Assembly: GCF_019038415.1 (NCBI RefSeq) | Contig: NZ_JAFKRG010000046.1 | Span: 1-64,000, forward strand | DNA length: 64,000 nt | Reading direction: 5' to 3' | DNA from: Synechococcus sp. CCY 9618 | Lineage (GTDB): Bacteria; Cyanobacteriota; Cyanobacteriia; PCC-6307; Cyanobiaceae | Shown here: positions 20,714 to 54,319 of the stretch, in pieces | How positions within the stretch are numbered: position 1 is the first letter of the stretch | Layout: each line of letters opens with the position of its first letter | Notes under the pieces: generated by a model | The model's database searches: none | What the model saw: the letters and a program-made list of their open reading frames with translations, nothing else | What the model was told of the DNA's origin: nothing | Program-made: the position numbers and the translations under genes

Positions 20714-20917
20714 ATGACCAACACCTCCAACATTGACCAGGCCTGGTTCGAAAGCGCCGCCACCGCCCAGATCCACGCCGAGCAGCTTCAGGCTGTCGAA
20801 CGCTTCAACGGTCGGGCCGCCATGCTCGGTTTCGTGATCGGCGTGCTCACCGAAGCCCTCACCGGCCAGGGGATCCTGCACCAGATCGGTCTGGGCACCC
20901 TGCTCTCCCAGGGCTGA
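20714..20917 (+). CDS. high-light-inducible protein (HLIP), 67 residues
   Basis: A one-helix thylakoid protein of the chlorophyll a/b-binding superfamily that binds pigment and protects photosystem assembly under excess light. The signature is VERFNGRAAMLGFVIGVLTEALTGQGI: the E-x2-N-x-R chlorophyll-binding set followed by the helix AMLGFVIG. An N-terminal soluble arm of about 27 residues makes it longer than the two 47-residue HLIPs in this window. The start ATG is at 20714. The gene follows the divergent cbiX by about 145 bases that include an HLR1-like site. Confidence 0.93.
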   Translation: MTNTSNIDQAWFESAATAQIHAEQLQAVERFNGRAAMLGFVIGVLTEALTGQGILHQIGLGTLLSQG

Positions 20918-30791: not shown

Positions 30792-30840
30792 CAGAAGAAT
30801 CAACAGTCCCGCCAATACCGGGATGGAGCTTAAGAAATAA

Positions 30841-30984
30841 TCAGCCCAGACCGATCTGGGAAAGGATGCCCTGGCCGGTGAGAAGTTCGGTGCCGAGGCC
30901 GATCACGAAGCCGAGCATGGCCAGACGGCCATTCCAGGTTTCAGCGAAGGCAACAAAGCCGAAGCGGGAGTCGGTGGTGGTCAT
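30841..30984 (-). CDS. high-light-inducible protein, 47 residues (copy A)
   Basis: A minimal HLIP: MTTTDSRFGFVAFAETWNGR followed by LAMLGFVIGLGTELLTGQGI and LSQIGLG. It contains the pigment-binding E-T-W-N-G-R set and a single thylakoid-spanning helix. The protein is almost identical to the 47-residue HLIP at 44354-44497, differing near the N-terminus and at one helix position (Leu/Ile). An HLR1-like element lies 20 bases upstream of the ATG. HLIPs bind chlorophyll and carotenoid and protect photosystem II assembly. Confidence 0.95.
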   Translation of the reverse strand: MTTTDSRFGFVAFAETWNGRLAMLGFVIGLGTELLTGQGILSQIGLG

Positions 30985-39132: not shown

Positions 39133-40041
39133 ATGGAGCCACTGCATCCCCTGCCCCTGGCGGCCCTGCCGCCGCTTCCGCCCCTGGCCCTGGCGGTGGT
39201 GGGGCACGTGGAGGTGGTGAGCTTCGTCGCGGTCGACCACCTGCCGGTTGCCGGTGAGATTCTCCACGGCAGCGACTGTCTGGAGCTCCCGGCCGGGGGC
39301 GGGGCCGTGGTGGCGGTGCAGATGGCCCGCCTCAGCGGAGAGCGGGTGCCCTTCTTCACCGCCCTGGGCCGGGACGGGGCCGGCCGACGGGCCGCCGAGG
39401 AGCTCGAGGCGCTGGGTCTGGAGCTGCACATCGCCTGGCGGGACGCCCCGACCCGCCGTGGGGTCACCTTCATTGATAAGAACGGCGAGCGCACGATCAC
39501 GGTGATCGGCGAGCGGCTGATGGCCACCGCCGCCGATGACCTGCCCTGGCAGCTCCTGGAACGGAGCGATGGGGTGTTCGTCACCGCCACCGACGCCGCC
39601 GGCCTGGTCCTGGCCCGGCGAGCCCGGGTGCTCACCGCCACGCCGCGGGTGCGCCTGGCGGTCCTGCGGGAAGCCGCTGTGGCGCTGGATGCCCTGATCG
39701 GCAGCGCCGCCGATCCGGGCGAGGCTTACCGGCCCGGAGATCTGGAGCCTGCGCCGCGGCTCTACATCGGCACCGAAGCCGAGCGGGGCGGGGTGCTGAT
39801 CCCAGGGGGGCGCTACGCCGCCGTCGGGCGGCAGCGGCCTGTGCTGGATGCCTACGGCGCCGGCGACAGCTTCGCCGCCGGGGTCACCACGGGCCTGGCC
39901 GCCGGCTGGCCCCTGCACCAGGCCCTCAGCCTGGGCGCCCATTGCGGCGCCGCCTGCCTGGACGGACGGGGCCCCTATGCGGGCCAGCTGCAGCTGGGTG
40001 CCGGTGGGCAACGCGCTGCCGGCGGCGATCCGCCAGCCTGA
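39133..40041 (+). CDS. PfkB-family sugar/nucleoside kinase
   Basis: A 302-residue ribokinase-like enzyme: an N-terminal HVEVVSFVAVDHLP region, a Gly-rich GGGAVVAVQMARLSG substrate part, and the C-terminal PfkB signature DAYGAGDSFAAGVTTGLAAG with the catalytic Asp and anion hole. The start ATG immediately follows the permease stop, so it belongs to the same transcript. The sugar substrate cannot be assigned. Confidence 0.86.
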   Translation: MEPLHPLPLAALPPLPPLALAVVGHVEVVSFVAVDHLPVAGEILHGSDCLELPAGGGAVVAVQMARLSGERVPFFTALGRDGAGRRAAEELEALGLELHIAWRDAPTRRGVTFIDKNGERTITVIGERLMATAADDLPWQLLERSDGVFVTATDAAGLVLARRARVLTATPRVRLAVLREAAVALDALIGSAADPGEAYRPGDLEPAPRLYIGTEAERGGVLIPGGRYAAVGRQRPVLDAYGAGDSFAAGVTTGLAAGWPLHQALSLGAHCGAACLDGRGPYAGQLQLGAGGQRAAGGDPPA

Positions 40042-40063
40042 AAGGCCGATCGCCCGGTCCCCA

Positions 40064-41398
40064 TTGAGCTTGCACGCCGTCGCGCCCCGCCCCCTGCCGC
40101 GCACGCCGGCGGTGAGCGGGCTGCTCGAAACCCTGGCGTTCTTCCGGGACCCGGAGTTCGCCGCCGACCGTTTCCGGCGCCACGGCGATCTGTGGGAAAC
40201 GCGGCTGCTGGGCCAGCGCACGGTGTTTCTGCGGGGCGAGCAGGCCGTGACGGACCTGTTCGCCCAGGGGGACGCCCTGGAGGGCTGGTGGCCGGAGAGC
40301 GTCCGCCGGCTGCTGGGCAGCCTGTCCCTGGCCAACCGCCAGGGGGCGGACCACCGGGCCCGGCGGCGGGTGGTGGGTCAGCTGTTCACCGCCGCTGCCC
40401 TGCGGCGCTATGCCCCGGCCATCGTGGGACTGGTCGACGCCCTCTGCCGGGACCTGGCGGCCAGCCCGGGGCCGGTGGCCCTGGCCGGCCGGCTGCGCCG
40501 GTTCGCCTTCGCGGTGATCGCCGGCCCCGTGCTGGGCCTGGACGCGGGCGAGCGGGACGCCCTCTTCCTCGATTTCGAAACCTGGACCCAGGGTCTGTTC
40601 TCTTTCCCTGTGGCCCTGCCCGGCAGCCCCTTCGCCCAGGCCCTGCGGGCCCGCCAGCGGCTGCTGGAGCGCATCGGCGCCGTGCTGGCGCGGGCCCAGG
40701 AGGCCGCCGCCGCCGGCAGGCCCCAGGCAGCTGGAGGCCTGGACCTGCTGGCGGGCGGCCTGGATGAGGCGGGCCTGCCCCTGGCGGATGCCGACGTGGT
40801 GGAACAGCTGTTGCTGCTGCTGTTCGCGGGCTACGAAACCACCGCCTCGTCGCTGGTGTGCCTGCTGCTGAGCCTGCTGCAGCATCCGACGGAGCTGGCC
40901 TGGCTGCAGGAGGAACTGGGGGGGATCTCCTGGCCGCCGGCCCCCGGCGAAGCCGCCACTGCCTTCGATCCGTCCCGGGCACCGCGGCTGGATGCGGTGG
41001 TGAAGGAGGTGATGCGGCTGATCCCACCCGTGGGTGGCTTCTTCCGCTACACCCGCCGGCCCGTCACCCTGGCGGGGGTGGCGATCCCCGCCGACCGGGT
41101 GGTGCAGGTGAGCATCGCGGCCAGTCACCGGCTCGGGTCGCCGGAGGCCGACCTGGACGCCTTCCGCCCGCGCCGCCATCTGGAGGCCGGCGGCTGCGGG
41201 GCCCTGCTGCTGCCCTACGGCGGTGGCGAGCGGGTGTGCCTCGGCAAGGCCCTGGCTGAGCTGGAGATCCGCCTGCTGAGCGTGGGGCTGCTGAAGCAGC
41301 TTGATCTGGAGCTGCTGCCGGATCAGGACCTGAGCCTGGCCATCATTCCCTCGCCCACGCCCCGCGATGGCCTGCGGGTGGGCCTCAGCCGGCGCTGA
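40064..41398 (+). CDS. cytochrome P450 (CYP120-like)
   Basis: A 444-residue heme monooxygenase. Features in order: the oxygen-binding I-helix LLLLFAGYETTASS, ExxR in VVKEVMRLIPP, and the heme-Cys loop LPYGGGERVCLGKALA, where Tyr replaces the usual Phe two residues before the first Gly. The start is a TTG at 40064, with no ATG in a sensible place; the gene begins 22 bases after the kinase stop. Cyanobacterial CYP120 enzymes oxidise retinoids, but the substrate here is not shown. It overlaps the convergent VOC gene by 14 bases. Confidence 0.88.
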   Translation: MSLHAVAPRPLPRTPAVSGLLETLAFFRDPEFAADRFRRHGDLWETRLLGQRTVFLRGEQAVTDLFAQGDALEGWWPESVRRLLGSLSLANRQGADHRARRRVVGQLFTAAALRRYAPAIVGLVDALCRDLAASPGPVALAGRLRRFAFAVIAGPVLGLDAGERDALFLDFETWTQGLFSFPVALPGSPFAQALRARQRLLERIGAVLARAQEAAAAGRPQAAGGLDLLAGGLDEAGLPLADADVVEQLLLLLFAGYETTASSLVCLLLSLLQHPTELAWLQEELGGISWPPAPGEAATAFDPSRAPRLDAVVKEVMRLIPPVGGFFRYTRRPVTLAGVAIPADRVVQVSIAASHRLGSPEADLDAFRPRRHLEAGGCGALLLPYGGGERVCLGKALAELEIRLLSVGLLKQLDLELLPDQDLSLAIIPSPTPRDGLRVGLSRR

Positions 41399-46849: not shown

Positions 46850-47512
46850 ATGACCACCACTCTCCTGCTCGAGATCTTCGCGGGCTTCTTCACCGCCTTT
46901 GTGGCCCTCTGGATGATCGCCCTCAACCGTCCCCGTTCCGTCGCCTCCGGCCCCGCCAGCACCCCGCCTGCCTTCGCTCTTCCCCCCGTCGCCGCTATTC
47001 GAGGGGGACTTGAGAGCTACTTCCTGCGGGAAGGTCGCCTGGCCAACATCGGCCTGCTGGTGCTGCGGCTGGCCATCGGAGCGATGATGATCCACCACGG
47101 CCAGGACAAGCTGGGCAACCCCCAGTCCTTCGCTGACAACTACGTGGTGCCCCTGCACCTCCCCTTTCCCCTGTTCTTCGCCTACGCGGCTGGCTACGCG
47201 GAGATCTTCGGCAGCTGGCTGCTGATCCTGGGCCTGCTCTCTCCCCTCGGTGCCCTCGCCCTGACCGGGACCATGTCGGTGGCGGCTTACCACCACATCC
47301 TCACCAGCGGGCTCAACATCTACGTGCTCGAGCTTGTGGTGCTCTACCTGGGCGGCAGCCTGGCCCTGCTGCTGGTGGGCCCTGGCCGTTACTCCTTCGA
47401 TGCCGGGATCGTGGCGGAACTCCTGGCCGACGACACCCTCGCCGCGGACACTGCGACTGACGCCCCGGAAGCCGAGGCTCCCGCCTTCACCATGGTGTCT
47501 GACGCCGGCTGA
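46850..47512 (+). CDS. DoxX family membrane protein
   Basis: A 220-residue protein with an N-terminal anchor helix (LLLEIFAGFFTAFVALWMIA), a Pro-rich linker, and a four-helix DoxX domain (LLVLRLAIGAMMIHHGQDKLG, GYAEIFGSWLLILGLLSPLG, VLELVVLYLGGSLALLL). DoxX proteins are often linked to redox or quinone chemistry; the His-rich loop MIHHGQDKL is typical. An acidic tail extends past the domain. It follows the photolyase gene by 77 bases. Confidence 0.82.
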   Translation: MTTTLLLEIFAGFFTAFVALWMIALNRPRSVASGPASTPPAFALPPVAAIRGGLESYFLREGRLANIGLLVLRLAIGAMMIHHGQDKLGNPQSFADNYVVPLHLPFPLFFAYAAGYAEIFGSWLLILGLLSPLGALALTGTMSVAAYHHILTSGLNIYVLELVVLYLGGSLALLLVGPGRYSFDAGIVAELLADDTLAADTATDAPEAEAPAFTMVSDAG

Positions 47513-47583
47513 GCAGGCCCGGGTGAGCGTCGGGAGCCCTGCATCGCTGATACCTTGGGCGGCCCGGAAGGAGGAGGTCGTCC

Positions 47584-49302
47584 GTGCCCCCGCGCCACAC
47601 CCCTCTGAGCAGAGCTCCTGGACGTCGCCTGCTGCGCTGGCTGGCGCTCACTCTGTTGCTGATGGCCAGCCTGCTGGGGCCCATCCAGCCGGGCCGGGCT
47701 CAGCTCCAGACCCTGCCCACCGGGGTGATCCAGGACCCGAGAAAGCCTCCTGTCGGAGTCACCCGGTTGGGGGATCTCGAGTCAGCCCGGGTCAGCTCCC
47801 CGATCGACAACCGACCGCTCTTCGCCATCGCGTCCCCCACGGTCTTCAACCGGGAGCAGATCCCCGAGGACCGGGTTCCCGTCGAGGTACGGGCCCGGGA
47901 CGTCTCCAGGAAGCTGCTGCAGTCCCTGCCGCGGTCGCTGTTCGGAGACGAGACCGCCACGGTCAGGGTCTCCAGCTCCGATGGCAGGCCGATCCTGACG
48001 ATCGTCGATCCCGGAAACTCCTCACCGATCCAGCTGCTCGCCGTTACCGAGGAGGACGCGGCGTATCACGGCACCAGTGCCGACCAGCTGGCCTGGCAGT
48101 GGCGTGAGCGGCTGCAGCAGGACCTCGACCGGGCCCGGCAGGTGCTCTCCCGGGAGGAACTGCTCCAGCGGGCCGGCGAGGCGGCTCGCATTCTCCTGGC
48201 CCTGGCGGCGGCCAGCCTGGCCCTGGGATGGCTGCGCCACCGGTTGCTGCGCCACAACCGGGCCCTCATCGAGGCGCTTCAGCCTCCGGTCGAGGGCCCG
48301 CCGCCGCCCCGGGGGCCCGGTGCCGAAGCCGGAGAAATGCTGGATCTGCGCAGCCGCTTCCTGCGCACCGTCCAGCAGCGCTTCAGCCTTGAGCGACGCA
48401 TCCGCACCCACGGGGTCCTGGCCTGGGCCCTGCTCTGGATGCTGCTCGGTCTGTGGTACGCGGGCCTGTATCGCATCCTCTCGCGGCTGCCGGTGCTGAT
48501 GGGCTGGAGCCCCTATGTGCTGACGACCCCCCTGTTCCTGCTGCTGCTCTGGTTCGGAGTCAGCGCAGCGATCCGGGTGGGCCAGAGCCTGGTGGAACGG
48601 GCGCTCGACGGCTGGGCCGGCTCACCTGGGCTGGCCGGCGATGCAGGCCAGCGGCAGGCCCTGCGCGCCCGCACGATCTCCGGCGCCCTCAAGGGCCTGC
48701 TCACCGTGGTGCTGGTGATCATGGGCGTTCTTTTGACCCTGGGCCTGTTCAGCGTCCCCACCTATTCGATTCTGGCGGGGGGTGCGGTCATCGGTCTGGC
48801 GGTCTCCCTGGGCTCCCAGAACCTCGTCAAGGATCTGGTGCACGGCTGCCTGATCCTGCTGGAGGACCAGTACGCCATCGGGGACATCATCGAAGTGGGC
48901 GGCAGGACGGGCCTGGTGGAGAATCTGAACCTGCGCATCACCCAGCTGCGCAACAGCCAGGGCCATCTCATCACGGTGCCCAACAGCCTCATCAACGACG
49001 TCATCAACACCACCAGGGACTGGGCCCAGGTGGACCTGGCCATCCAGGTGGCGGGAAGCAGCGATCCCCATCGGGTGATGGCCGTGCTGTGGCAGGTGGC
49101 CGAGGATCTGCGACACGATCCCTCCTGGCGGCAGCGGCTGCCCCACCCTCCCGAGGTGCTGGGCATCGAGGACCTCTCACCGGCCGGCATCACCCTGCGC
49201 GTCTGGCTGAAGACCACGCCGATGGCCCAGTGGAGTGTGGCCCGGGAACTGCGCCTGCGGGTGCAGCAGGCTTTCACCCGGGAGGAGATCCGCCTGGCCT
49301 GA
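47584..49302 (+). CDS. MscS-type mechanosensitive channel
   Basis: A 572-residue membrane protein. A signal peptide (LLRWLALTLLLMASLLGPIQ) leads to a periplasmic region of about 170 residues. Two helices, further membrane segments and the MscS core follow: GAVIGLAVSLGSQNLVKDLV (the channel helix with Gly/Ala spacing) and GCLILLEDQYAIGDIIEVGG, then RTGLVENLNLRITQLRN and VPNSLINDVINTTRDW. The start is a GTG at 47584. It would release ions on osmotic downshock. Confidence 0.88.
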   Translation: MPPRHTPLSRAPGRRLLRWLALTLLLMASLLGPIQPGRAQLQTLPTGVIQDPRKPPVGVTRLGDLESARVSSPIDNRPLFAIASPTVFNREQIPEDRVPVEVRARDVSRKLLQSLPRSLFGDETATVRVSSSDGRPILTIVDPGNSSPIQLLAVTEEDAAYHGTSADQLAWQWRERLQQDLDRARQVLSREELLQRAGEAARILLALAAASLALGWLRHRLLRHNRALIEALQPPVEGPPPPRGPGAEAGEMLDLRSRFLRTVQQRFSLERRIRTHGVLAWALLWMLLGLWYAGLYRILSRLPVLMGWSPYVLTTPLFLLLLWFGVSAAIRVGQSLVERALDGWAGSPGLAGDAGQRQALRARTISGALKGLLTVVLVIMGVLLTLGLFSVPTYSILAGGAVIGLAVSLGSQNLVKDLVHGCLILLEDQYAIGDIIEVGGRTGLVENLNLRITQLRNSQGHLITVPNSLINDVINTTRDWAQVDLAIQVAGSSDPHRVMAVLWQVAEDLRHDPSWRQRLPHPPEVLGIEDLSPAGITLRVWLKTTPMAQWSVARELRLRVQQAFTREEIRLA

Positions 49303-49354
49303 GGGCAGAGGGCCCCCGCCACCGATAGGGTCGCAGCCAGCTGCCGCTGGCACC

Positions 49355-50263
49355 ATGGCCCTGGACATCGCCCTGCTGGGCAGCGGGCTTCTGGGCGGCG
49401 CCATCGGCGAACGGCTGCTGGAACGGGGGCACCGGCTCACGGTCTGGAACCGGACGCCGGAACGGGCGGCCTCCCTGGTGGACGCCGGCGCCACCGCGGC
49501 CACCGGCGCGGCCGAAGCCGCCGCTCGCTGCCCCTGGCTCATGACCGTCCTCAGCGACGGGGCCGCCTGCCGCAGCGTGCTGATCGACGCCATCGGCGCT
49601 GGACTGCGGGGACGCACCGTGATCCAGATCGGCACGATCGGAGTCGGCGAGAGCAGGGCGCTGGCCACCGAGGTCGAGGCCCGGGGCGGCGCCTTTCTGG
49701 AGGCGCCGGTGCTGGGCAGCCGACCGGAGGCCCGTGCGGGCCAGCTCCAGGTGATGGCCGGCGGCAACACCGAGCTGTTCGCGCGGGCCCTCCCCCTGCT
49801 GCGGGACCTGGACCCGGAACCCCGACGCATGGGGGAGAGGGGGGCCGGGCTGGAGACCAAGCTGGCCCTGAACCAGCTGATCGCCAGCCTCACCCACGCC
49901 TTCAGCCTCTCCCTGCATCTGGTGGAGGCCGCCGGCGTGGAGGTGGAGAGCTTCATGGCCATCCTGCGGGCCAGCGCGCTCTACGCCCCCACCTTCGACA
50001 AGAAGTTGCCGAAGCTGCGCAGCGGCGACTACGCCAACCCCAACTTCCCCACCGCCCACCTGCGCAAGGACCTCCGTCTCTTCATGGAGGCGGCTGAAGC
50101 CCATGGCCTGCGGACGGATGGCCTGGCGGGACTGGCCCAGCTGCTCGCAGAAGCCACGGCAGCCGGCATCGACAACCTCGACTACAGCGCCCTGCACCGG
50201 CTCACCGCGGCGGTCACCCCTTCAGGAGCGGCGCAGCCGGTTGGGAAAGAAGGCGGGGGCTGA
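49355..50263 (+). CDS. NAD(P)-dependent beta-hydroxyacid dehydrogenase family protein
   Basis: A 302-residue protein of the 3-hydroxyisobutyrate/glyoxylate-reductase family. The N-terminal Rossmann fold starts IALLGSGLLGGAIGERLLER; the substrate-binding TIGVGESRALA and the conserved Lys in ETKLALNQLIASLTHAF follow, and the C-terminal helical domain has YANPNFPTAHLRKDLRL. Substrate (glyoxylate, succinic semialdehyde or similar) is not determined. Its last 42 bases overlap the convergent kinase/WYL gene. Confidence 0.84.
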   Translation: MALDIALLGSGLLGGAIGERLLERGHRLTVWNRTPERAASLVDAGATAATGAAEAAARCPWLMTVLSDGAACRSVLIDAIGAGLRGRTVIQIGTIGVGESRALATEVEARGGAFLEAPVLGSRPEARAGQLQVMAGGNTELFARALPLLRDLDPEPRRMGERGAGLETKLALNQLIASLTHAFSLSLHLVEAAGVEVESFMAILRASALYAPTFDKKLPKLRSGDYANPNFPTAHLRKDLRLFMEAAEAHGLRTDGLAGLAQLLAEATAAGIDNLDYSALHRLTAAVTPSGAAQPVGKEGGG

Positions 50264-52390
50264 GGCCTGCCGTGCATAGGCGGCCAGCCCCTCCCGGCAA
50301 CGCTGCTGGTGTTCCTCGCGCAGGTCTTCGGGCGACTCGATGCGGATGCCCCCGGCGAAACCGAACAGCCAGCGGCGCAGGTCCACGTCCCGTGCCACGG
50401 TCCAGGTCGGCAGGTCGAACTCCACCGGATAGGGGTGGCTGTCGCCCCGGGGGTTGGGCTCGAGCACATGGGGAGCGCTGGGGTGGCACCACCAGGTGTC
50501 ACCAGCCAGGGGCCGGGAGAAGCGGGTGTGCTCGGCGGGATAGAGCTGCTGCCCTTCGCGGATGAAGGCGAAGGCCCAGTCCTGGCAGGAGACGCGCAGC
50601 GTCACCAGCAGCTCGGCCCGGCGGCGGGCGGGGCCATGGGCCAGAACGAGCTGCTGCTCCAGATCAGCGCCGAAGTAGATGCCGCCACAGTGCCGCAGGA
50701 GCTGGCGCACCCGCTTGAGGGAGCGGCGGTGGAGGGCCCCATCCCGGTGGGGCAGGGCCCCGGTCTGGCGCAGGGCCAGCCGCTCCAGCCGCTCGGTGTG
50801 GATCAGCCCCTCGGCCCGGCCGATGGGGTGGTCCTCGTAGACCAGGTACCAGGCGACGTTATGGAACAGCAACTGCAGCGGCCAGACCTGCAGGGTTCCC
50901 TGGGGGCTGTCGGAGAAGGCGGCGGCGGAGGCGTAGCGCTCCAGCACCACCAGGCGGTGCTCCAGGATCGCCGTCTCGATGCGCTCGGCCTGGGCCGCCA
51001 CCGCCAGGGAATCGGAGCGCACCCAGGAGGGATGGGCCACGGCGTGGTTGGCGAAGGCCCGCACGGGGGGATGGCCTTCGGTGTCGATGCCCCCCCAGTG
51101 GAGCCGTTCCTCAAGCTCCCGCAGCAGGTCCTGGGCGGAGGGATCGGCCAGGGGACCAGCCGCCTGCTGGACCAGGGCATGCACCTCCCGCAGCCGCGGT
51201 GCCGACAGCAAAGCCGTGCCGATGGCATAGCCGTGGCGCACGTTGTCGTTGCGCGCCCGGAATCCGTAGGGGGTGAGCAGCTTCTCCATGTCCTTGCGGA
51301 GGGTGGCCACCTCCCCGGGGAGATAGCTGCCGGGGATGGCCTCCAGACGGGCGATCAGATGCTCCGGAAGGGAGAGCTGGGGGTCCTGGTCGAAGGGTGC
51401 CTGCAGCAGGTGGCGCAGGAGGGTCAGGACCCGTATGAACACAGCCCTGTCCCCCAGGGAGGGATAGCCGCCGTGGACCCCGCCGGTGGCAGGGCAGGGC
51501 CCCTCCAGCGGGGACGGCGGCAGGGGCACCAGGGGCGTGGTGGCGGGCATGGTCGCCGTGAATCCCTCCCGCTCCAGCCAGGCCAGATCCTTCCGGATCG
51601 CCGCCGTATTCCCGTAGCAGGCGCCGTGAAGCCGTTGCAGGTAGGCCGCCGCCCGATCCGCCAGATCCCCCTGGGGCAGGGGGGAGACGATCGCCTCAAG
51701 CTGATCGCGGGTGCCGGAATCGGACGCCTCCAGGGCGGGGAAGCGGCTGAGCAGGCGAAGCAGGTGAAGCAGCCGCTCCAGATCCAGCAGCCGGGAGTGG
51801 CCGTGGAGCTGCAGAGCCTTCTCCCGGTTGGTGGCGGAGCGGATGCGGCGGTCCAGCCTGGCCAGCTCATCGGTGAGCAGGGGTTCGAGCTGTTCATGGT
51901 GCTGGGGCACCACACTCACCAGGGCAGCGAAGCCCTCGTCCCGGCTGGGGCCGAAGTGGCCATCGGCCAGGGCTGCCGCCATCTCGCGGATCACCGGTTC
52001 GGGCACCAGGCGGGGACGGCGGCGATTCCACTCCAGACAGGTGGCCACCGGGGTGAACAGCCACCAGCCGATCCACTCCACGGGAGCCGGCAGGCTGAGA
52101 GCCTGGGTGATCGCCAGCCGCCAGGGGCGCCGGGCATGGGTGGCATCCACGATCACCGGCCTGCCGGCGGCCACTTCCTTGATGATGCAGCCATGGAGCT
52201 GGTCCTCGATGGCGGTCCAGGGCCCCTGGACTGCGGCGTCCCCGAACACCTCCTGGCGGATCCGATCGGTGGACAGCACCCGGGCCGGGGCTTCCCCCGC
52301 TGCGGTGAGCAGAGGCGCCAGGGCATGGGCCAGGGTGGTCTTGCCGCTGGCCGGCGGACCGATCAGGAGATGGCAGCGGAGGGGCTTCAT
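50222..52390 (-). CDS. P-loop kinase / WYL-domain fusion protein
   Basis: A 722-residue protein. The N-terminal 160 residues form a polynucleotide-kinase-like P-loop domain: Walker A LLIGPPASGKTT (about 7-18), LSTDRIRQEVFGD, and VIVDATHARRPW. A central helical region and a winged-helix-like part (KDLAWLEREGFTA; MEKLLTPYGFR) follow. The last 300 residues resemble a WYL regulatory module (LQLLFHNVAWYLVYEDHPIG; AEGLIHTERLERLAL). WYL domains often sense nucleotides and control stress or defence genes. Start ATG at 52390 (MKPLRCH). Confidence 0.78.
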   Translation of the reverse strand: MKPLRCHLLIGPPASGKTTLAHALAPLLTAAGEAPARVLSTDRIRQEVFGDAAVQGPWTAIEDQLHGCIIKEVAAGRPVIVDATHARRPWRLAITQALSLPAPVEWIGWWLFTPVATCLEWNRRRPRLVPEPVIREMAAALADGHFGPSRDEGFAALVSVVPQHHEQLEPLLTDELARLDRRIRSATNREKALQLHGHSRLLDLERLLHLLRLLSRFPALEASDSGTRDQLEAIVSPLPQGDLADRAAAYLQRLHGACYGNTAAIRKDLAWLEREGFTATMPATTPLVPLPPSPLEGPCPATGGVHGGYPSLGDRAVFIRVLTLLRHLLQAPFDQDPQLSLPEHLIARLEAIPGSYLPGEVATLRKDMEKLLTPYGFRARNDNVRHGYAIGTALLSAPRLREVHALVQQAAGPLADPSAQDLLRELEERLHWGGIDTEGHPPVRAFANHAVAHPSWVRSDSLAVAAQAERIETAILEHRLVVLERYASAAAFSDSPQGTLQVWPLQLLFHNVAWYLVYEDHPIGRAEGLIHTERLERLALRQTGALPHRDGALHRRSLKRVRQLLRHCGGIYFGADLEQQLVLAHGPARRRAELLVTLRVSCQDWAFAFIREGQQLYPAEHTRFSRPLAGDTWWCHPSAPHVLEPNPRGDSHPYPVEFDLPTWTVARDVDLRRWLFGFAGGIRIESPEDLREEHQQRCREGLAAYARQASAPAFFPNRLRRS

Positions 52391-52808
52391 CGGACCAGGC
52401 TGCCAGCCGCCCGCAGGGGCGATGGAAGATCGTTGCCATTCACCCATCCAGGAAGCGGGCAGGCAACCGCCTGCGGCAACAGGCCCGGCAGAGGCAGACA
52501 ATAATTTTGACCCCGCCGCGTCAAAAAAGCAGCATTTTTCTGTTTCGTCTCAGTACAATCTGCGCAGCTCCAGAGGTAAGGAAGATCCGAGGACTACGGC
52601 AGTTTCCATGGGTTGAACGGTCCCGGGCGGTGGGGAGATGGGCCATATCGCTTCAAACAGGGTTGCCGACAAGGTGCGTCAGCGGTGACCGCTGCCTTCG
52701 GCGTTGGAGCCTGCGAGCACCAGGGAACGGATCTCGTTTTTCGCATGATCCGCATCCGCCGCCGGGCCGTGAAGGGGAAAGTTGGACATCTCTTCTCCTC
52801 CAGCTGCG
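52391..52808 (+). promoter_or_regulatory. gene-free divergent promoter region with a 22-base dyad
   Basis: About 420 bases between the kinase/WYL gene and the divergent HTH gene. It contains TTTTGAC-N8-GTCAAAA at 52505-52526, a perfect 7-base inverted repeat, followed by an A/T-rich patch (AAAAAGCAGCATTTTT, about 52524-52539) and a TACAAT -10-like box at 52553-52558. The rest is GC-rich with no convincing ORF. The dyad is a candidate operator for either neighbour. Confidence 0.4.
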
Positions 52809-53735
52809 ATGACCACTGCGCCCCCAGCCGACTCCGAGGCTGGTCCCCGCCGTCGCAGACCCGGGACCAGCGCCTACAGGATTCCCGATCCGCTGAGGGA
52901 TCTCCGGGTGATCGACCTGCTCGAACTCACCGGCAACCAGCTCCAGGCCGGCCAGGCCCTGCAGGTGCACCAGTCGACGGTCTGCCGGATCCGCAAGACC
53001 TGGATCGAGCAGTTCGGCATCGTCAGGACCGCCGGTGTGGAGCCCGGCCAGCGCCCGCCGCTCACCGGCATGGGCCTCTGCATCCAGCACCTGCGCATGG
53101 CGGCCCGGGCCCATCGCATGGAGGAGGGCTGGCTGCGACTGGCCACCGATGCCCTTCACCAGCCGCTGGTGGATGGGATGGAGGCCACGATCCTCGTGCC
53201 GCCCCGGTTCCGGAGTTCCCGCCACTGGGCTGAACTGGTGCGACTGGGGGTGATCGACGCAGCGCTCGTGTCCTCGCTCTGCCACGATCAATGGCTGGAG
53301 CCGGGGGGAAGACCCTCCTGGCCGGGCGTGAGGATGCTGCCCCTGGGGGAGCTGACCCTGGGGCTGGCCTCCCGCACGGGCCGGGCCCGCCAGGTTCTCG
53401 TGCCCCATCGCCTCAGCACGCCGCTGCTGCATCTCCAGCTGCAGGAGCGGAAGCTGGCCCTGATGACGGCCCCCCGCAGTTGCCAGGAGCAGGAGGACTG
53501 GCTGCACAGCGTGGCCGGTTCCAGCCGGGCGCTGCTGCTCTGCCGTCAGCTGGCCGGTGCCGGCCCGATGCGGGATCTGGGCCTGCGCTGGCACCGCGAT
53601 GCGCCGCCCCTGATGGAGCAGTTGTGGTTGCTGCTGCCCGCCGGCCAGCCCCATGTGCTGACCCCCACGGTGCGAGCGGCCGAGAAACGCCTGAAGCGCC
53701 GGCTCCAGTGGCTGCGCAGACGCCTCAGTGACTAA
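52809..53735 (+). CDS. HTH-type regulator, LysR-like
   Basis: A 308-residue protein. After a basic Pro/Arg-rich start, residues about 30-80 form a helix-turn-helix (LRDLRVIDLLELTGNQLQAG, QALQVHQSTVCRIRKTWIE). The C-terminal 200 residues have the alternating pattern of a LysR-type ligand domain (ATILVPPRFRSS, DAALVSSLCHDQW, LLPLGELTLGLA-like stretch) but lack a clear LysR signature. The start ATG at 52809 is preferred. It is divergent from the kinase/WYL gene and may control it. Family assignment is tentative. Confidence 0.62.
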   Translation: MTTAPPADSEAGPRRRRPGTSAYRIPDPLRDLRVIDLLELTGNQLQAGQALQVHQSTVCRIRKTWIEQFGIVRTAGVEPGQRPPLTGMGLCIQHLRMAARAHRMEEGWLRLATDALHQPLVDGMEATILVPPRFRSSRHWAELVRLGVIDAALVSSLCHDQWLEPGGRPSWPGVRMLPLGELTLGLASRTGRARQVLVPHRLSTPLLHLQLQERKLALMTAPRSCQEQEDWLHSVAGSSRALLLCRQLAGAGPMRDLGLRWHRDAPPLMEQLWLLLPAGQPHVLTPTVRAAEKRLKRRLQWLRRRLSD

Positions 53736-53794
53736 ACGCCATTGCACCGGCGGGCGCTTCTGGGGCAGGCTGGATCTCTGGTCGCACCGACACC

Positions 53795-54319
53795 ATGACC
53801 CGCGAGCTCGACCCCTTTCGCATTCCCCGTGCCGGCTGGGAGGCCGCACCGCTGGCGGGACTGGCCTCGGTGGATCTGAATCAGAACGGCGGTGCCTTCA
53901 GCGGCGGGGAATTCGTCTCGGAATCCACCGTCGGTGGGGTGGTGCTCTACGCCGCCTACCAGGCACTGCTGACGGCCCTGCGCACCGAGGCCCTGCGCAA
54001 GCGCGGCGAGATCGACCGCGGCACCCAGGTGCGCCTGGTGCTGCGCACCAGCCTGGAATCGGCGAAAACCGGCGTGGCGGTGGGGGCGGTGCTGTCGGTG
54101 GTGCTGCTGGTCTTCCCCTGGCTGGCGGGGCCGATGGCGGTGTTCGGGGTGGTGGGCAGCGCCAAGGCCTCCCTGGATCTGTTCCATGCCTTCTGGGATG
54201 GCCTCGATGAGGAGCAGAAGCTTCAGGTGACCGTGGCCGCCCACGAAGCGGGCGTGAACCTGGGCACCTTCTTCCGCAACGCCGACGACGGGGCGGGTCC
54301 GGTCGCGGTCCGGCCATGA
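53795..54319 (+). CDS. conserved membrane protein, unknown
   Basis: A 174-residue protein: a soluble N-terminus (DLNQNGGAFSGGEFVSES), a helical middle rich in Ala/Leu/Arg (AAYQALLTALRTEALRKRGE), then two hydrophobic helices (TGVAVGAVLSVVLLVFPWLA and GPMAVFGVVGSAK), and a soluble tail with AHEAGVN. It overlaps the next gene by 4 bases (ATGA), so both are co-translated. No family assigned. Confidence 0.65.
   Translation: MTRELDPFRIPRAGWEAAPLAGLASVDLNQNGGAFSGGEFVSESTVGGVVLYAAYQALLTALRTEALRKRGEIDRGTQVRLVLRTSLESAKTGVAVGAVLSVVLLVFPWLAGPMAVFGVVGSAKASLDLFHAFWDGLDEEQKLQVTVAAHEAGVNLGTFFRNADDGAGPVAVRP

What the first reader, a model, noticed from the sequence alone, without database searches (positions are those of the whole stretch)
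50222..53735. P-loop kinase fused to a WYL regulatory domain, divergent from an HTH regulator across a perfect dyad
A polynucleotide-kinase-like ATPase joined to winged-helix and WYL parts is an unusual sensor-effector layout; WYL domains are known regulators of defence and DNA-damage genes and bind nucleic acids. The shared 420-base region holds TTTTGAC-N8-GTCAAAA, a symmetrical candidate operator. The arrangement could be a nucleic-acid-sensing switch. Function is inference from domains.
Basis: partly seen in the sequence, partly recalled or inferred. Interest (0 to 1): 0.6.

Follow-up and report, generated by a model that had tools for sequence, protein, structure and literature searches.

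The report
Kinase–WYL regulator cassette of cyanobacterial immunity
The two genes found here are a stray copy of a portable control unit (a DNA/RNA-end-kinase-like protein fused to a WYL sensor, usually paired with a LysR-type regulator) that in other cyanobacteria sits at the promoters of many different anti-virus systems, including CRISPR, and seems to carry its own conserved DNA switch site.

Summary
The protein at 50222-52390(-) is real: a polynucleotide-kinase-like P-loop domain (AF2 model matches CthPnkp, VIA Z 20.1) fused to winged-helix/WYL/WCX parts resembling PafBC and DriD. The divergent gene (52782 or 52809-53735) is a LysR-type regulator by fold.

The new result lies outside the window. 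In Cyanobiaceae the kinase-WYL/LysR pair sits directly upstream of unrelated defence operons: Hma, type III R-M, Druantia-E-like, DrmD-like helicase plus type IIG, Hhe-like and Mrr. In other cyanobacteria the fusion alone flanks type III-B CRISPR (Cmr) operons. Control loci: 0 of 40. Near-identical cassettes (95% over 3.4 kb) precede different operons. A conserved site, TCGTNNTTCGCATGA-like, recurs upstream of the fusion across the phylum; the window holds it at 52734-52748, the only exact match in its genome. The window copy is an orphan in a ~6.2-kb insertion with no defence operon.

Best reading: a CapW/BrxR-like nucleic-acid-sensing regulator with a kinase domain added. Binding, ligand and kinase activity are inferred, not shown.

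The parts
50222..52390 (-). Kinase-WYL fusion, 722 aa, start ATG 52390: residues ~2-181 Pnkp-like P-loop kinase; ~200-290 helical/winged-helix-like; ~315-400 winged helix; ~465-610 WYL; ~620-700 WCX
52782..53735 (+). LysR-type transcriptional regulator (N-terminal HTH, linker helix, PBP2-like effector domain); ATG alternative start at 52809
   Evidence: Foldseek: ArgP 3isp E 3.5e-12, LysG, CbnR, OxyR
52734..52748 (+). Candidate true operator TCGTTTTTCGCATGA; same consensus TCGTNNTTCGCATGA in type III-B CRISPR-linked fusions of other families
52505..52526 (.).
47513..53745 (.). Inserted block (approximate ends) absent at the same site in six same-genus genomes; carries MscS-like, NAD-binding dehydrogenase, kinase-WYL and LysR genes
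49235..50263 (+). 6-phosphogluconate/3-hydroxyisobutyrate-dehydrogenase-like gene, tail-to-tail overlap with the kinase gene; not defence
53795..54319 (+). 174-aa gene of unknown function, native to the chromosome, follows the LysR gene where other copies have a defence operon

Best explanation
A regulatory cassette for antiviral operons, here as an orphan copy. The kinase-WYL protein is most likely a DNA-binding regulator of the BrxR/CapW/PafBC kind that binds the TTCGCA-type site between the divergent genes through its winged helix. Its WYL domain, and probably its polynucleotide-kinase domain, sense nucleic acid made during infection or DNA damage (single strands or 5'-OH ends); binding or end-phosphorylation changes its hold on the operator and so the expression of the kinase gene, the LysR gene and the operon that follows. 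In Cyanobiaceae a LysR-type protein was added as second regulator and the cassette (kinase, spacer, LysR, about 130 bp beyond) stays while the defence operon behind it is exchanged. Shown by computation: domain make-up, fold of both proteins, linkage to many defence types, exchange of the operon behind near-identical cassettes, a conserved site. Inferred: that the site is an operator, which protein binds it, the ligand, kinase activity, and the sign of regulation.
For: Kinase domain: profile vs CthPnkp E 1.5e-7 with Walker A, D42/R45 and lid R125 aligned, fold Z 20.1, K17 35/36, D42 30/36, R125 36/36 conserved. WYL half: PADLOC WYL 5.2e-15, Foldseek PafBC 3.1e-7 and DriD 4.6e-5. LysR fold. Linkage: first co-directional genes after LysR are HmaABC, type III Res/Mod, Druantia-E-like, DrmD-like + IIG, Hhe-like and Mrr: 18 of 25 LysR loci with at least 3 kb of sequence. 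Cmr genes near 19 of 32 fusions outside the family. 0 of 40 random 20-kb loci match the same references. Swap: L074 (Hma) and L093 (Druantia-like) 95.0% identical over 3365 bp, then unrelated; L087/L105 and L083/L104 likewise. Site: TNNTTCGCANGA in 20 of 84 upstream regions, 0 of 1960 control windows; inverted pair exactly 53 bp apart in eight loci; found also where no LysR gene is present.
Against: Linkage is not regulation; no binding, expression or induction data. The window copy itself has no defence operon beside it. D42 is lost in a divergent subgroup. The whole-protein AF2 model has pTM 0.44, so domain packing is unknown. The 84 upstream regions are not independent and the patterns were derived from part of them. 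Some copies have no recognised defence neighbour, and some sit next to ordinary genes (L002-L005, L084, L102).
Confidence: 0.62

Rival explanations
1. The fusion is mainly an effector or repair enzyme: it phosphorylates 5'-OH ends of RNA or DNA cut by defence nucleases (Csx1, restriction enzymes, Mrr), and the winged-helix/WYL part only recruits it to nucleic acid or autoregulates its gene.
For: Kinase residues conserved as in Pnkp; neighbours include nucleases that leave ends; stand-alone relatives of the kinase domain are common in cyanobacteria.
Against: Position at the divergent promoter of the operon, a conserved site next to it, and WYL/wHTH parts like PafBC, DriD point to transcription. 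No phosphatase or ligase domain in the protein.
Confidence: 0.18
2. The LysR-type protein, not the kinase-WYL protein, binds the TTCGCA site and is the main regulator of the operon; the kinase-WYL protein acts upstream or is a passenger.
For: LysR regulators typically bind the spacer to a divergent gene (established knowledge); sites remain beside LysR genes without a kinase neighbour, L103 and L107.
Against: The site occurs upstream of fusions that have no LysR partner, L006, L106, L110 and Cmr-linked L146, L149, L150, L152.
Confidence: 0.3
3. Hitch-hiking: the pair marks the edge of an integration hotspot and is inherited with it; it does not control the cargo. In the window it is a non-functional leftover.
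For: Several loci share ordinary flanking genes on the kinase side; many degraded copies; window copy has no cargo and lies in an insertion absent from relatives.
Against: Linkage to defence holds across lineages at about 30% protein identity and different genes (Cmr), with a conserved site; window ORFs are intact with kinase residues kept.
Confidence: 0.2

Closest known systems
BrxR / CapW (WYL regulators of BREX and CBASS; PMC9122601, PMC9122588, PMC9122589)
   Same: Winged helix + WYL + WCX type parts; gene at the promoter of diverse defence operons; candidate operator in the upstream region
   Different: Carries an N-terminal polynucleotide-kinase-like domain and an extra helical/wHTH segment (722 aa); divergent, often with a LysR partner; different site
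CapK/CapS (PMC13373217)
   Same: [quoted passage not shown] proposed nucleic-acid sensing
   Different: CapK is GHKL with STAS, CapS STAS-wHTH; here a P-loop Pnkp-like kinase fused to WYL and a LysR-type protein; no evidence that LysR is phosphorylated
Clostridium thermocellum Pnkp kinase domain (4gp6, 4mde)
   Same: Fold, Walker A, general-base Asp, lid Arg
   Different: No phosphatase or ligase module; fused to a transcription-factor-like half
PafBC and DriD (WYL regulators that bind single-stranded DNA; 9fnd, 9cu3, PMC11804915)
   Same: Fold of the WYL half by Foldseek
   Different: No kinase domain; regulate DNA-damage genes, not defence cargo
Sll7009 of Synechocystis (WYL regulator of a I-D CRISPR system; cited in PMC4012209)
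   Same: Cyanobacterial WYL protein at a CRISPR locus
   Different: Known from that review as a WYL protein regulating type I-D; relation to this fusion not tested here

Membership tests
WYL defence regulators (BrxR/CapW) | WYL domain with C-terminal extension (WCX) | tested here: met
   PADLOC WYL PDLC01652 5.2e-15; Pfam WYL/WCX weak, below cut-off; Foldseek PafBC, DriD
WYL defence regulators (BrxR/CapW) | N-terminal winged-helix DNA-binding domain and no enzyme domain | tested here: not met
   N-terminus is a Pnkp-like kinase; winged-helix-like segments lie in the middle
WYL defence regulators (BrxR/CapW) | Encoded at the promoter of defence operons | tested here: met
   Met for the family; not met for the window copy
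WYL defence regulators (BrxR/CapW) | Represses operon, released by single-stranded DNA or damage | not testable with these tools
   needs binding and expression assays
Polynucleotide 5'-kinase (Pnkp/T4 Pnk type) | P-loop, general-base Asp, lid Arg in Pnkp register | tested here: met
   profile alignment to 4gp6, residue counts, Z 20.1
Polynucleotide 5'-kinase (Pnkp/T4 Pnk type) | 5'-OH nucleic acid kinase activity | not testable with these tools
   -
LysR-type transcriptional regulators | N-terminal HTH + linker helix + PBP2-like effector domain | tested here: met
   AF2 pLDDT 85, Foldseek PDB top hits all LysR-type, E down to 3.5e-12
LysR-type transcriptional regulators | T-N11-A operator in the divergent spacer | tested here: inconclusive
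CapK/CapS | GHKL kinase with STAS; STAS-wHTH repressor | tested here: not met
   P-loop kinase and LysR fold instead; CapKS definition from PMC13373217
CRISPR type III-B accessory gene | Adjacent to Cas10b/Cmr genes | tested here: met
   met in 19 of 32 loci outside Cyanobiaceae, not in the window

The most novel reading that the evidence does not exclude
The fusion is a phylum-wide cyanobacterial infection sensor in which a polynucleotide-kinase domain reads or phosphorylates 5'-OH nucleic acid ends and hands the signal to the WYL half, so that one plug-in cassette with one conserved operator switches on CRISPR type III-B, restriction-modification, Hma, Druantia-like and other operons; orphan copies such as the window's act in trans on such sites.
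Probability: 0.25. Interest if true: 0.85.

Novelty: new variant of a known kind. Interest (0 to 1): 0.62.

Why it matters
How defence operons are kept off and switched on is largely unknown. This would be a third architecture, after WYL-only (BrxR/CapW) and kinase-repressor (CapKS) units, with an enzyme that acts on nucleic acid ends built into the regulator. The same unit in front of many unrelated systems, including CRISPR, makes a prediction that can be tested directly: one signal and one site controlling exchangeable immunity in cyanobacteria.

Tried and rejected
Dyad as operator: rejected. Sigma-70 promoter and terminator scan of the spacer: nothing. TTG 52501 as start of the kinase: unlikely, homologues begin at ATG 52390. 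Defence operon next to the window pair: none found; neighbours are dehydrogenase, SnoaL-like and a 174-aa gene without Pfam match. Target-site duplication at the insertion: no obvious one seen in the junction alignment. Prior description in the paper library: none found for a kinase-WYL fusion at defence loci; one relevant survey of type III accessory genes is not held. The tree is a quick one with long branches and is used only for near neighbours. VIA-align rows were filled by the kinase domain, so the WYL half rests on Foldseek and PADLOC.
Full report
Check of the observation. The minus-strand ORF is real and encodes a Pnkp-like P-loop kinase joined to WYL parts: AAA_33 at residues 7-140 with E 6.2e-18, PADLOC WYL at 465-700 with E 5.2e-15. 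Homologues align from the ATG at 52390, so the protein is 722 aa. The divergent ORF ends at 53735 and starts at 52782 or 52809. The dyad is at 52505-52526 and unique in the genome. However, 46% of dinucleotide shuffles of the spacer contain an equally long perfect inverted repeat with a loop up to 20, the spacer has other ones, and none of 42 homologous upstream regions has the dyad.

What the proteins are. An AF2 model from 36 homologues (mean pLDDT 76, pTM 0.44) matches the Clostridium thermocellum polynucleotide kinase over residues 2-181 (VIA Z 20.1, rmsd 2.4; Foldseek E 1.7e-9). The profile alignment keeps the Walker A motif, D42, R45 and the lid arginine; K17 is present in 35 of 36, D42 in 30 of 36 and R125 in 36 of 36 homologues. 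The other half matches PafBC and DriD, both WYL regulators; the abstracts of PMC11804915 and PMC12340889 (listed) describe single-stranded DNA binding by PafBC and DriD. Because pTM is low, only the domains, not their packing, are trusted. The partner (AF2 pLDDT 85) is a LysR-type regulator by fold: the best PDB matches are ArgP, LysG, CbnR and OxyR.

Distribution. In the family, 40 of 151 genomes carry the kinase-WYL gene and 29 of 151 the LysR gene, often in several copies and with degraded copies. In the genus, 38 of 42 genomes have at least a piece, up to eight matches per genome. Across the phylum about 35 genomes outside the family hold full-length fusions, and the two halves also exist apart, as ~170-aa kinases and ~400-aa wHTH-WYL proteins.

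Neighbourhood. In Cyanobiaceae the LysR gene is followed, in the same direction, by large defence genes. PADLOC names Hma A, B and C (E 0, 0 and 2e-234) in L100, type III Mod next to a ResIII helicase in L071, a Druantia-E-like helicase in L087, a DrmD-like helicase followed by a type IIG enzyme in L103, an Hhe/PDC-S37-like helicase in L088 and an Mrr nuclease in L108. BrxL lies next to the LysR gene on the opposite strand in L090 and L107, with PglZ in L107. Of 25 LysR loci with at least 3 kb of sequence behind the gene, 18 have a recognised defence gene in the same direction. Outside the family the fusion has no LysR partner but lies near type III-B CRISPR genes (Cas10b, Cmr3-6, Csx1) in 19 of 32 loci; 40 random 20-kb loci from 20 of the same genomes had no match to the same reference set. 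The loci are not all independent, and the references were chosen from these loci, so the contrast is a guide, not a P value.

Exchange of cargo. L074 and L093 are 95.0% identical over 3365 bp from the kinase to about 130 bp beyond the LysR stop; then one has Hma and the other a Druantia-like operon. L087/L105 (88.7% over 3183 bp) and L083/L104 (86%) behave likewise. Some loci share ordinary genes on the kinase side, so a shared integration hotspot with exchangeable cargo is part of the picture.

A conserved site. Alignment of eight spacers shows TGCGAAAGAGCA and TGCTCTTTCGCA facing each other exactly 53 bp apart, 84-85 bp apart in two more; single copies occur in others. A matrix built from 20 Cyanobiaceae sites, none from the window, gives one hit of 10 bits or more in the whole 64-kb window, in this spacer at 52728-52751 (6 of 500 shuffles as good). 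Fusions linked to Cmr in other families carry TCGTNNTTCGCATGA in the same place; that pattern occurs once in the window's 2.9-Mb genome, at 52734-52748. TNNTTCGCANGA is in 20 of 84 upstream regions and 0 of 1960 control windows. Since the site occurs at fusions without LysR, the kinase-WYL protein is the likelier binder, but sites beside LysR genes without a kinase neighbour (L103, L107) keep the question open.

The window copy. In six same-genus genomes the gene upstream (stop at 47512) is followed within about 100 bp by the 174-aa gene at 53795; the window has about 6.2 kb more, holding an MscS-like gene, an NAD-binding dehydrogenase, the kinase-WYL gene and the LysR gene. No defence gene is next to it. 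It is an inserted, intact orphan copy with its site.

How it most likely works. By homology to BrxR, CapW, PafBC and DriD the fusion should be a regulator that answers nucleic acid made in infection or damage; the kinase domain suggests reading or marking of 5' ends. None of this is shown here. CapK/CapS (PMC13373217) is the closest functional parallel but shares no domains. The papers found describe no such fusion at defence loci.

Verdict. A new variant of a known kind: WYL defence regulators with a built-in polynucleotide-kinase-like domain, spread over cyanobacteria as a plug-in cassette.

Noticed in passing
window 39995-41384: About 1.4 kb present in the window but missing at the same place in several same-genus genomes (L253, L255-L258, L260).
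   Followed up: no
L087:7093, L105:6523, L106:8410, L104:12514: Further strong matches to the TTCGCA-type site near small genes without Pfam matches, some kb from the kinase: a possible wider regulon.
   Followed up: partly
G429:C2:427746-472530, G438:C47, L096/L097 (G077): Several kinase-domain or kinase-WYL copies and fragments clustered within tens of kb.
   Followed up: no
window ~20819-20896 and ~30839-30984: Short stretches 82-91% alike to a part of the neighbouring 43-45 kb region, seen through relatives: a repeated coding segment.
   Followed up: no
L143:11119-12051: ORF next to a kinase-WYL gene made of tandem repeats (LHQFAPKPPILGACINLPPNPQFWG), probably a non-coding repeat array read through.
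   Followed up: no
L002-L005: A kinase-WYL copy without LysR or defence genes at a shared chromosomal place beside an AhpC/TSA-like gene in several genomes.
   Followed up: partly
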